A DNA stretch of 37,157 nt, taken from assembly GCA_030426545.1 (NCBI GenBank), contig JAUHYL010000038.1, positions 1-37,157 on the forward strand. Reading direction: 5' to 3'. Of this stretch, positions 5,894 to 20,897 are shown piece by piece. Source of the stretch: Gammaproteobacteria bacterium. Lineage in GTDB: Bacteria; Pseudomonadota; Gammaproteobacteria; Pseudomonadales; Halieaceae. Numbering within the stretch: the first letter of the stretch is position 1; each line of letters begins with the position of its first letter. Below the pieces are notes generated by a model. It was not told the DNA's origin. It did no database searches and saw only the letters and a list, made by a program, of their open reading frames with translations. A program made the translations under genes and the position numbers.

Positions 5894-6270
5894 GACTCTG
5901 GCTGATCTGGATGGAGCCATGCAACTTCTCCGTTTGGTTTTAACTGTGCCAGCCTAATACTGCCCATGCCATAGTCATGATGGAGATAACAGGGTAACTC
6001 CGCGCCAGAGATCAACTTTTCTAGTTCAGGCCAATTCGAGAGAAGCTCCTCGAACACGCCTTTACCATGAAGGAGCTCAAGTTTAGCTGACTCCATACTA
6101 GTAGATTCAGCGCCATTTTTAGACCATACCAGCAGCTGGAGGCCTTGACATTTAGCGTTAACAATCGAAATCGGCGGAATGAGCAGAACATCCAGACCTT
6201 GGGACAAACGTTCGAGTGCAAGCGTGCCCCTTTCGTTATCCAAGTCACTAGCCTGAATCTGCATGGCCAC
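5887..6270 (-). CDS. Hypothetical protein, first integron cassette gene
   Basis: 127 residues from a GTG inside the cassette boundary box. The ATG at 6264 (two residues shorter) is the more likely start because AGGTGG just before it can act as ribosome site, though the spacing is short. The stop codon TAA lies in the R'' box of its attC, so coding sequence fills nearly the whole 437-bp cassette (6274 to 5838), a classic cassette layout. The protein is soluble with no signal peptide. The segment VLLIPPISIVNAKCQGLQLLVW suggests a beta-rich core, and SNWPELEKLISG follows. I recognise no family. Being first in the array, it would be the best expressed if a promoter lies toward nagB. Confidence 0.65.
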   Translation of the reverse strand: MAMQIQASDLDNERGTLALERLSQGLDVLLIPPISIVNAKCQGLQLLVWSKNGAESTSMESAKLELLHGKGVFEELLSNWPELEKLISGAELPCYLHHDYGMGSIRLAQLKPNGEVAWLHPDQPEST

Positions 6271-18335: not shown

Positions 18336-19163
18336 TTGGAGCTCAGTCCAGTCTTCTGGGGGCTAGTACCCGTGCTGCTCGCCCTCGCCGCCTTCGCCAT
18401 CAATTTCATGTATCGCCGCTGGCGGCGCGAACGCATCCTGCAGCGCCCGTTCCCCGAGGCGTGGAGCAACTACTTGCTGCAGCGGGTTCCGGTCTACGGC
18501 CGCCTGTCGGATGCGGAGCGCTCGCGGCTGCACCAGATGATCCACGTGTTTCTCGAAGAAAAGCCGTTCTACGGCTGCGCCGGGCTGGAAATCAACGACG
18601 AGATTCGCGTGAGCATCGCGGCGCAGGCCTGCCTGTTGTCCCTCGGCAGAAATGCAGCGCTGTACCCGGGGCTACAGGCAATCCTGGTTTACCCGAACGC
18701 GTTCATTGCACGCCGCGACGTGTTCGGTGACGACGGCATCGTCGCGGACAGTGAACACCACATGCTCGGCGAGTCCTGGGACAATGGCCGTGTCATCCTG
18801 TCCTGGGATGACGTGGAGGCCGGCGGCAGCAACTTCCGCGATGGCCACAACGTGGTGCTGCACGAGTTTGCGCACCAGCTGGATTCTGCTTCCGGCGCTA
18901 CTAACGGCGCACCCCCGCTATGGCGCAACAGCTACCAGGCGTGGGCTACGGTGTTTTCGGAGAACTTTGAAGACCTGCGCAAACGGGTGGCGAGTCAGCA
19001 GCCGACGGTGATGGATGCTTATGGCACTACGAACGAGGCGGAGTTTTTTGCGGTGGCGACGGAGACGTTTTTTGAGCGGCCTGAGGAGTTGTTGGAGCAT
19101 CGGCCGGAGTTGTTTCGGGAACTGGAGGCTTATTATCAGTTGGATCCTCGGCGGTGGCGGTAG
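18336..19163 (+). CDS. MtfA-like zinc peptidase (M90 family)
   Basis: 275 residues starting with TTG, supported by AAAAGGGG about 8 bases upstream. A membrane segment at residues 6-25 is followed by basic residues, so the body probably faces the cytoplasm. The zinc motif HEFAHQLD is at 176-183 (His176, Glu177, His180), and a later Glu in EFFAVATETFF (about 240-250) can be the third ligand. This matches MtfA, the Mlc-binding peptidase of enterobacteria that influences glucose uptake. A role toward Mlc is not implied here, since no Mlc is seen. The last 50 codons switch to G- and T-ending codons, unlike the C-rich first part. A strong hairpin follows the gene. Confidence 0.85.
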   Translation: MELSPVFWGLVPVLLALAAFAINFMYRRWRRERILQRPFPEAWSNYLLQRVPVYGRLSDAERSRLHQMIHVFLEEKPFYGCAGLEINDEIRVSIAAQACLLSLGRNAALYPGLQAILVYPNAFIARRDVFGDDGIVADSEHHMLGESWDNGRVILSWDDVEAGGSNFRDGHNVVLHEFAHQLDSASGATNGAPPLWRNSYQAWATVFSENFEDLRKRVASQQPTVMDAYGTTNEAEFFAVATETFFERPEELLEHRPELFRELEAYYQLDPRRWR

Positions 19164-19177
19164 TTTTAGATTCGACT

Positions 19178-19247
19178 CCTGACGGTGGCGATGGGTAGGG
19201 TTAAAGGCCTGACGGTGGCGATAGATGGGTTAGAGGCCTGACGGTGC
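19178..19247 (+). repeat. Direct repeats of CCTGACGGTG
   Basis: CCTGACGGTGGCGAT occurs at 19178 and 19208, and CCTGACGGTGCCAGG at 19237, with spacings of 30 and 29 bases. The third copy is the start of the left arm of the inverted repeat at 19235-19307. The region lies just after the MtfA-like gene. Confidence 0.7.
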
Positions 19248-19314
19248 CAGGGTAACGAGGTTCGGAAGGCTGAGATACTCACCTCGTTACCCTGGCACCG
19301 TCAGGCCATTTTTT
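19235..19314 (+). terminator. Perfect 26-bp inverted repeat A with T-run
   Basis: Left arm 19235-19260 and right arm 19282-19307 are exact reverse complements over 26 bases with a 21-base loop. On the plus strand the right arm is followed by ATTTTTTG, so it can act as an intrinsic terminator for the MtfA-like gene. The stem is far longer than terminators need. It is the first of four such repeats in this gap. Confidence 0.8.
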
Positions 19315-19360
19315 GCCGCTTTCTGCGGAGAGGGTGTTGGCGGTTCTGTTATTTGGAGGC

Positions 19361-19506
19361 GGTCTGCCAATGGGGCGGGCGGTTGCTGCGCGGCAGGCGG
19401 CGCTCCGCGCTGCCCTCGGTCGGTCGCGAGCCGGGAAAGCGCCGTCTCGCGCCTCTCTCTCGGCGCCTACCGTCAGCGCAGCAACCGCCCGCCCCATTGG
19501 CAGACC
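19361..19506. repeat. Perfect 31-bp inverted repeat B with 84-bp core
   Basis: Left arm 19361-19391 (starting GGTCTGCCAATGGGGCGGGC) and right arm 19476-19506 are exact reverse complements over 31 bases. The 84-bp interior contains CTGCCCTCGGTCGGTCGCGA followed by GCCG. This matches the interior of repeat C read on the other strand. No open reading frame of note and no transposase is present. Confidence 0.85.
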
Positions 19507-19593
19507 TTGTGATTTCTGGGTGGATGGATTCTGTGGGATTTGAGCCGTGGTGGGTCTTTTTCGAACGCCCCTGCGGCTGTAGCTCTCTGAGGT

Positions 19594-19724
19594 GGGAGAA
19601 GGGCTGCAGGGCCCGTTGCAAATCTCGCGCTGAAGGAGTGGCGGGTGACGCGTAGCGGCTCACAACCGACTGAAGGCACCCCGGAGGGGCGCGGAGATAA
19701 AACGGGCCCTGCAGCCCTTCTCCC
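19594..19724. repeat. Perfect 24-bp inverted repeat C with 83-bp core
   Basis: Left arm 19594-19617 (GGGAGAAGGGCTGCAGGGCC then CGTT) and right arm 19701-19724 are exact reverse complements over 24 bases. The 83-bp interior, read on the minus strand, contains GTGCCTTCAGTCGGTTGTGA then GCCG. This agrees with the core of repeat B at 19 of 24 positions. The arms of B and C are unrelated to each other. Confidence 0.85.
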
Positions 19725-19787
19725 GCCGGCAACGGCAGCGAAAGGCCGCCAACACCTGTTGGATCTACAAACTAAAGAACGTTAGAA

Positions 19788-19864
19788 GCATGGCGCGAAC
19801 GGGCTGTGCCGCCGAAGGGAGTCTGCTTTTCGACCGCAGGCGGCACAGCCCGTTCGCGCCATGC
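19788..19864. repeat. Perfect 26-bp inverted repeat D
   Basis: Left arm 19788-19813 (starting GCATGGCGCGAACGGGCTGT) and right arm 19839-19864 are exact reverse complements over 26 bases with a 25-base loop. It lies 35 bases after the stop of the minus-strand GAPDH gene, where a terminator is expected, but no clear T-run follows on that strand. The loop on the minus strand has ACTCCCTTCGGCG, similar to ACTCCTTCAGCG in the core of C. Confidence 0.8.
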
Positions 19865-19898
19865 GTCCACCACGAAAGAACCGCGTCAACAGAGCAAT

Positions 19899-20897
19899 CT
19901 AACCCCAGGAATTAATCCGCCCCAACAGATCACAAACCCGCGAAGAATAACCCCACTCATTGTCGTACCAGTTCAAAACTCGCAGGTTGCTACCGCCATT
20001 TACGTTGGTAAAACCCGCATCGTAAATCGACGAGTGTGAGTTGCCGATAATGTCGGTCGACACTATCGGCGCACGGGTAAATTGCAGGATGCCTTGCAGC
20101 GGCCCGTTGGCCGCCTCTTCCACCGCGGCATGCACATCGTCCACGCTCACTTCGGAATTGAGACGCACAAACAGGTCTACTACCGAGCCGTCGGGCACCG
20201 GTACGCGCGCGGCGATGCCGTGCAGTTTGCCCTGCAGTTGCGGCAGTACTTCACCCACCGCCTTGGCCGCGCCGGTAGAGGTCGGGATGATGTTTTCCGC
20301 CGCGGCGCGGCTGCGTCGCCAATCCGAGTGCGGTACGTCGGCGAGGCGCTGGTCATTGGTGTAGGCGTGCACGGTATCGATCACGCCTTCGCGGATGCCA
20401 AAGGCGTCGTCCAGCACCTTGGCCATCGGCGCCAGGCAGTTCGTGGTGCAACTGGCATTGGAGATAATGCGGTGGGACTCCTGCAGGCCATCATCGTTGA
20501 CGCCCAGCACCACCGTGTAGTCGATATCATCCTTGGCGGGCACGGTTAACAGTACACGGCCCGCGCCGGCGGCGAGGTGTTGCTCCAGTTGTTCGCGCGC
20601 GCGAAACACACCGGTGGCTTCTACTACCGCGTCGATACCGAGTTCACCCCACGGCAGTTGCGCCGGGTCGCGCTCGCAGAGCATTTTCACGCGGCCCTTG
20701 TCCGTCACAAATTCATCGCCTTCAAGCGCGAGATTGCCCGGGAAGGGACCCATTACCGTGTCGTAGCTGAGGAGATAGCGCAGGGCGTCGTTGTCGAACA
20801 GGTCGTTGATCGCAACGACATCGATGCCCTCCACGTTTTCCAGGATGCGGAACACCGAACGGCCGATACGGCCAAAACCATTGATGGCAACTTTCAT
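19899..20897 (-). CDS. gap: Glyceraldehyde-3-phosphate dehydrogenase, type I
   Basis: 332 residues, the normal length. It oxidises glyceraldehyde-3-phosphate to 1,3-bisphosphoglycerate with NAD+. The N-terminal INGFGRIGR binds NAD, and Asp32 in AINDLF favours NAD over NADP. Catalytic Cys150 is in SNASCTTN and His177 in TVHAYT. STGAAKAVG and ARVP form the phosphate sites, and NWYDNEWGYSSRV closes the protein. The ATG overlaps the stop of the upstream GAPDH-like gene (ATGA), so the two are translationally coupled. KDPG aldolase is two genes upstream, which places the enzyme downstream of the Entner-Doudoroff pathway. Confidence 0.95.
   Translation of the reverse strand: MKVAINGFGRIGRSVFRILENVEGIDVVAINDLFDNDALRYLLSYDTVMGPFPGNLALEGDEFVTDKGRVKMLCERDPAQLPWGELGIDAVVEATGVFRAREQLEQHLAAGAGRVLLTVPAKDDIDYTVVLGVNDDGLQESHRIISNASCTTNCLAPMAKVLDDAFGIREGVIDTVHAYTNDQRLADVPHSDWRRSRAAAENIIPTSTGAAKAVGEVLPQLQGKLHGIAARVPVPDGSVVDLFVRLNSEVSVDDVHAAVEEAANGPLQGILQFTRAPIVSTDIIGNSHSSIYDAGFTNVNGGSNLRVLNWYDNEWGYSSRVCDLLGRINSWG

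What the first reader, a model, noticed from the sequence alone, without database searches (positions are those of the whole stretch)
19235..19864. Four long perfect inverted repeats of unrelated sequence packed in one gap
Arms of 26, 31, 24 and 26 bases are all exact reverse complements with loops of 21, 84, 83 and 25 bases, and the arm sequences differ from one another. Terminators do not need such perfect stems. Perfection implies recent formation or active correction, for example by template switching during replication or by a hairpin-processing enzyme. This is the least explained structure in the window.
Basis: seen in the sequence. Interest (0 to 1): 0.75.

Follow-up and report, generated by a model that had tools for sequence, protein, structure and literature searches.

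The report
Mirror-paired folding repeat with free stems
The four long perfect hairpins are the parts of one copy of a scattered, folding DNA element of marine bacteria, in which the loops and a core stay the same while the long stems change freely but keep pairing.

Summary
The four repeats are not four unrelated accidents: they are the stems of one copy of a dispersed Halieaceae element, two units head to head (19235-19867). Each unit is a folded module with a long free stem, tandem G.A pairs and a GGA-capped hairpin (IR-B, IR-C), then 53 or 63 nt, then a 26-27-bp hairpin with a conserved loop (IR-A, IR-D).

IR-A has at least 22 places in this genome: stems differ, loop constant. The folded module is in 15 of 140 family genomes and none of 368 others in a class sample; 38 of 39 neighbouring pairs are head to head.

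Arms change in concert (9 of 12 changed pairs of IR-D against its paralogue). Across genomes imperfect pairs are G.T rather than A.C on one strand (123 vs 27; 63 vs 18), so one folded strand is kept, not only symmetric DNA correction; this genome alone shows no bias (9 vs 9).

It fits no terminator, retron or RAYT-linked REP as tested. What moves or reads it, and whether RNA or ssDNA folds, is open.

The parts
19235..19867 (.). one copy of the double element: two units head to head
   Evidence: layout as in 38 of 39 neighbouring F3 pairs of relatives
19235..19307 (-). IR-A, hairpin of the left unit (family F1): 27-bp stem, 19-nt loop (GAGTATCTCAGCCTTCCGA in the outward reading)
   Evidence: 22 aligned own copies, 27 + 19 in each, the loop being found by a 19-nt pattern; covariation
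19308..19360 (-). spacer of the left unit, 53 nt
   Evidence: spacers of 52-71 nt in 36 units of other loci
19361..19506 (-). IR-B with its interior: folded module F3 of the left unit, 31-bp stem
   Evidence: core match 19389-19474 (-), 79.0 bits; this row was in the model's training set
19507..19590 (.). centre between the two units; no promoter-like site found
19591..19727 (+). IR-C with its interior: folded module F3 of the right unit, 24-bp perfect stem (26 of 27 extended)
   Evidence: core match 19619-19700 (+), 72.6 bits, also in the training set; paralogue on C44, 88% identical
19725..19787 (+). spacer of the right unit, 63 nt from the perfect stem
19788..19864 (+). IR-D, hairpin of the right unit (family F2): 26-bp stem, loop with GAGTCTGCTTTTCGA
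   Evidence: same place and loop type as in relatives; decayed paralogue on C44
19178..19234 (+). tandem partial repeats of the outer IR-A arm (CCTGACGGTGGCGAT...), outside the hairpin
   Evidence: similar repeats outside F1 in C44 and G014

Best explanation
The four inverted repeats are one copy of a dispersed, non-autonomous element of Halieaceae made of two head-to-head copies of one folded unit, each read outward. A unit is a module with a long free stem carrying a two-armed conserved core, a spacer of about 55 nt, and a hairpin of about 27 bp with a conserved loop. Shown: dispersal, layout, conserved loop and core, free but complementary stems, and one-strand bias of imperfect pairs across genomes. 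Inferred: a protein acting in trans reads the folded single strand by its loop and core and spreads the element, so that any stem sequence serves as long as it pairs; selection for folding, helped by arm-to-arm copying in replication, keeps the stems near perfect. The protein is unknown, and whether the folded strand is DNA or RNA is not settled.
For: At least 22 F1 places in this genome. Fixed layout: 35 of 41 F3 cores in loci partly fetched for the hairpin have it downstream, and 36 of 58 in loci fetched by F3 alone, at 52-71 nt, against 7 of 400 control windows; 38 of 39 neighbouring F3 pairs head to head. F1 covariation: 76 both-side cells against 19.8 shuffled; F3 core: 93 against 34.4, tandem G.A pairs in 29-33 of 33 rows, GGA triloop in 32 of 33. 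23 stem clusters with one loop type. Strand bias G.T over A.C in two separate stems: 123 to 27 and 63 to 18. Patchy spread: 15 of 140 family genomes, 10 of them not in the training set. Different contents of one orthologous gap in congeners G083 and G081.
Against: No transposase is tied to it: no Y1 in this genome, none of 14 fetched Y1 regions carries an F1/F2 loop or a hairpin-bearing F3, no RT in the 8 F1-positive genomes. No target duplication was established and no copy with a gene in the centre among the 39 pairs (largest centre 602 nt). 22 of 58 units lack the second hairpin as searched. The own genome shows no strand bias (9 to 9). In G083/G081 insertion and loss cannot be told apart from replacement.
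Confidence: 0.5

Rival explanations
1. A functional RNA element: each unit is transcribed, in a 3' region or as a small RNA, and the fold works in the transcript, for example as a barrier to 3' exonucleases behind Rho-dependent ends. Copies spread rarely and are kept for function.
For: G.T over A.C on one strand, tandem G.A pairs and GGA loop, strong predicted folds (z -11.1 and -14.7). F1 copies lie between genes (none of 104 inside a called gene; own copies with both flanks known: 13 convergent, 7 tandem, 0 divergent). Flanks on the folded strand are rich in C and poor in G in 22 of 23 own copies.
Against: No transcript data. Head-to-head pairs with no promoter-like site in the window's centre. 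Over all genomes 7 of 56 F1 copies with both flanks known lie in divergent gaps, and in tandem gaps the folded strand matches the genes in only 20 of 30. The own genome has no strand bias.
Confidence: 0.3
2. Inverted repeats born and kept perfect only by template switching between arms in replication, without function or reader.
For: Concerted changes against the C44 paralogue: IR-D 9 of 12 changed positions, IR-C 1 of 1, IR-A 4 of 5. In own F1 stems 33 of 76 double-changed cells are of the type reachable through G.U (43%), where PMC8794818 gives 61.0% for its instantaneous changes in rRNA (section 8; counted differently). No strand bias in the own genome.
Against: Loop 92% identical between copies against 76% for the arms, conserved core and layout, strand bias in the relatives. 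Mismatches shared by many G014 copies show that correction is not prompt there (by eye).
Confidence: 0.1
3. Plain intrinsic terminators of the two convergent genes.
For: Convergent gap; IR-A is followed by six T on the plus strand.
Against: A run of five T within 12 nt follows the hairpin in 1 of 24 own copies on that strand and in 0 of 24 on the other. Terminator-like hairpins lie beside F1 in four own gaps noted by eye (L035, L072, L077, L154). In G083 and G081 an ordinary terminator lies upstream of differing elements.
Confidence: 0.05

Closest known systems
REP / REPIN / BIME repeats with RAYT (TnpA_REP) transposases
   Same: Dispersed intergenic palindromes, often as inverted doublets (PMC3116915, abstract and passages); strand-specific recognition of a folded hairpin, and in two studied systems a loop and a perfect stem matter (PMC8266576, passages).
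   Different: Stem of 27 bp and loop of 15-19 nt, a second two-armed module, no GTAG at the foot (0 of 102), no Y1 gene in this genome and none of 14 Y1 regions elsewhere tied to it.
Quasi-palindromes corrected by template switching (PMC8794818, abstract and section 8; Lavi et al. on proteobacterial inverted repeats, recalled, not read)
   Same: Complementary double changes in the arms.
   Different: Interior conserved, strand bias across genomes, copies dispersed with a fixed layout.
MITE-type non-autonomous elements (general knowledge)
   Same: Short, dispersed, without a gene, mirror-symmetric.
   Different: No target duplication or mobilising transposon established; the ends are folding units with free stems rather than one constant terminal repeat.

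Membership tests
REP/REPIN with RAYT | dispersed intergenic palindromes, inverted doublets | tested here: met
REP/REPIN with RAYT | GTAG-type tetranucleotide at the foot | tested here: not met
   GTAG within 10 nt 5' of the hairpin in 0 of 102 (2 of the 104 lacked enough flank); GGAG in 6, GTTG in 2
REP/REPIN with RAYT | RAYT (Y1_Tnp) gene in the genome, flanked by the repeat | tested here: not met
   none in G000 (97.85% complete); Y1 in 13 of 18 element-bearing genomes, but none of 14 of the 16 matches, those fetched, has an F1/F2 loop nearby; three loose F3-core matches had no hairpin and two lie in genes
Intrinsic terminator | G+C-rich stem followed by a T-run | tested here: not met
   T5 in 1 of 24 own copies on one strand, 0 of 24 on the other
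Retron / RT-based element | reverse transcriptase in the genome | tested here: not met
   RVT_1 in 0 of 8 F1-positive genomes; G012, which has F3, has one
Rfam RNA families | match at gathering score | tested here: not met
   0 matches in the window; only matches below gathering score with lax settings, 19 of 21 to microRNA families
MITE | target duplication and mobilising transposase | tested here: inconclusive
   ends looked at by eye in G083/G081 and G012 copies; an inverted CTTGCTAAGCGGGC pair flanks the G083 copy, no duplication established
Integron attC site | R boxes and an integron integrase | not tested
   considered from memory only

The most novel reading that the evidence does not exclude
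A new class of bacterial mobile element defined by a fold rather than a sequence: a two-armed core and a loop-capped hairpin are kept on one strand, while two stems of about 27 bp may take any sequence that pairs; two such units are joined head to head, and an unknown protein, neither Y1 transposase nor reverse transcriptase, moves or reads the folded strand.
Probability: 0.4. Interest if true: 0.85.

Novelty: new variant of a known kind. Interest (0 to 1): 0.68.

Why it matters
Dispersed palindromes in bacteria are commonly explained by REP sequences with a RAYT transposase. This element is more elaborate and, as tested, has neither that partner nor that signature. Its 23 stem clusters with one loop type are a natural experiment on an old question, how perfect stems stay perfect: selection on one folded strand and arm-to-arm copying in replication leave different marks (strand bias of imperfect pairs; type of double change) that can be counted. 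It also gives a clear bait for finding the protein that reads the loop.

Tried and rejected
Rfam: nothing at gathering score; loose hits only below it. The likeness of the F1 loop to part of the TPP riboswitch was noticed by eye and dropped, since no TPP match appears. RT-based element. RAYT. Against my reading, Y1 genes are commoner in element-bearing genomes (13 of 18) than in the 17 family genomes without a hit of either model (6 of 17, my count); kinship was not corrected for. Strain comparison of this very gap was not possible: 0 of 30 relatives' loci held both neighbours. An autonomous copy was sought only among the 39 listed F3 pairs.

Rows left out or chosen: A2 leaves out L088 of 22 own copies (same lengths, but it shifted the alignment). 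A4 uses 33 of 38 fuzzy core hits; three looked spurious (L037, L166, L185) and two were near-duplicates (L118, L161). A3 uses 26 of 29. One of 41 core hits (L012) looks false and is counted as a miss; three of the 41 also show a hairpin upstream. One search leaves out 2 units cut by a locus end and asks for a P1 score of at least 11. In one search one of five measures (further pair types) is weak, 33 of 500 shuffles reaching it. Gene calls come from my own codon-usage script trained on this window, also where applied to other genomes. Searches over more than 40 genomes used stricter filters and can miss weak copies.

Papers: PMC8794818, abstract and section 8. PMC3116915, abstract and passages. 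PMC8266576, start of abstract and passages. Lavi et al. recalled, not read. Searches that ran for a description in print; none of the listed titles describes this element. Facts on sheared G.A pairs, Rho sites, exonuclease barriers and MITEs are recalled.

Full report
What is in the window. The gap between the convergent genes 18336-19163 (+) and 19899-20897 (-) holds four long inverted repeats, as reported: IR-A 27 pairs with loop 19, IR-B 31 with 84, IR-C 24 with 83, IR-D 26 with 25. The other 13 inverted repeats listed for the window pair at 70-88% over 16-27 nt.

They belong to dispersed families. A search with the gap found further copies in the own genome and in relatives. The IR-A hairpin (family F1) was aligned from 22 places of this genome; the covariance model lists a few more. 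In 22 of 22 the stem is 27 bp and the loop 19 nt; the loop was located with a 19-nt pattern, the stem end was not imposed, and pair 28 forms in 6 of 24 copies, as chance would give. On the 21 copies of alignment A2, 96.8% of 567 cells pair against 81.8% after shuffling, 20 of 27 pairs have changes on both sides, and 76 cells are changed on both sides against 19.8. The arms are about 76% identical between copies, the loop 92%. IR-B and IR-C share one interior in opposite orientation (family F3). IR-D (family F2) has a loop similar to that of F1 but shorter.

Other genomes. Among 104 distinct F1-type hairpins from fetched loci, stems fall into 23 clusters with one loop type. The exact loop pattern in the genome collection gave 29 stretches: 24 in Halieaceae (23 of Halioglobus sp. 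NAT121, one with four copies of Pseudohalioglobus sediminis NY5) and 5 in Bacteroidota records whose flanks do not pair (3-10 of 27). That collection may leave out the own genome. F1 was found in 8 of 140 family genomes at the cut-off and F3 in 15 of 140, 10 of which gave no row to the model; F3 was found in none of 368 other genomes of a class sample. Contig lengths identify G014 as NAT121 and G027 as NY5.

The unit. On one side of F3 lies a second hairpin of F1 or F2 type. In loci fetched for F3 alone, 36 of 58 units show one within 140 nt, with spacers of 52-71 nt, against 7 of 400 control windows; the 22 without it are mainly in G012, G091, G092, G093 and G014. Of 39 neighbouring F3 pairs closer than 1 kb, 38 are head to head. 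The window is such a pair: IR-B with IR-A on the minus strand (spacer 53), IR-C with IR-D on the plus strand (spacer 63). Contig C44 has a decayed relative with IR-A-, IR-C- and IR-D-like hairpins but one F3.

The fold. The F3 core (33 rows) has tandem G.A/A.G pairs at two places (33, 32, 31 and 29 of 33 rows), a GGA triloop in 32 of 33, and covarying helices (93 both-side cells against 34.4). The two units of the window fold as RNA with z-scores of -11.1 and -14.7; that does not prove that they are RNA.

How the stems stay near perfect. Against the C44 relative, IR-D differs at 12 positions, 9 of them changed in both arms to another Watson-Crick pair; IR-C 1 of 1; IR-A 4 of 5. In own F1 stems 43 of 76 double-changed cells are of transversion type, which no single G.U step bridges; PMC8794818 reports 61.0% of the other type in rRNA, counted differently. 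That speaks for a part played by arm-to-arm copying. But read on the outward strand, imperfect pairs are G.T rather than A.C: 123 to 27 cells in F1 without the innermost pair, 61 to 18 after collapsing to stem clusters and positions, 16 clusters to 3 with 4 ties, and 63 to 18 in 76 stems of F3. A strand-symmetric process does not give that. In the own genome the count is 9 to 9, so the bias rests on the relatives.

Where it sits. None of 104 F1 copies lies inside a called gene. Own copies with both flanks known are 13 convergent, 7 tandem, 0 divergent; over all genomes 19, 30 and 7, with 48 unknown. Sixty-base flanks of the folded strand have more C than G in 22 of 23 own copies. A run of five T follows 1 of 24 own hairpins, that of the window, and ordinary terminator-like hairpins lie beside four others. 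In the congeners G083 and G081 the same gap with the same upstream terminator holds a full element in one and a lone F3 with an unrelated 32-bp stem in the other: the contents of such gaps turn over.

What it is not, as tested. RT: 0 of 8 F1-positive genomes. Y1 transposase: none in this genome; present in 13 of 18 element-bearing genomes, yet none of 14 fetched Y1 regions carries an F1 or F2 loop, and their own palindromes are of other kinds. GTAG at the foot: 0 of 102. Rfam: none at gathering score.

Reading. The best-supported account is a dispersed, non-autonomous element recognised as a folded single strand, with free stems. Dispersal, layout, covariation and strand bias are shown. The reading protein, movement, and whether DNA or RNA folds are inferred. 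A transcript-level role in 3' regions is the main rival.

Noticed in passing
L145:3132-3245; L146:540-672 and 5998-6115 (G016): A further class of repeat with 26-30-bp near-perfect stems around an interior with two small hairpins (GGCGACAGGACGTCGCC, GCACATGGATGTGC) and GCTTTTTGGC.
   Followed up: no
L053 (G000:C82) and L290 (G082:C88): A 3.7-kb contig of this genome is 96.6% identical over 378 bp to a genome of another genus: contamination or recent transfer.
   Followed up: no
L314 (G027) and L304, L305, L309, L310, L311: Y1 genes lie near other palindromes: repeats TCGCGGCTGTGGCCGCTCC in G027, GGGGTCAGAG- or GGGGACAGACC-type palindromes in others.
   Followed up: partly
window 19178-19234; L147; L170; L031: Tandem partial repeats of the F1 arm outside the hairpin; in L147 the period looks like 46 nt, the sum of arm and loop.
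   Followed up: partly
window 19349-19732 (-) and 19353-19655 (+): Two open frames of 127 and 100 aa inside the array; my gene caller gives them no gene.
   Followed up: partly
G014 contigs (L188-L206): 22 of 28 listed F1 hits lie within 600 nt of a contig end, so the element probably breaks that assembly.
   Followed up: partly
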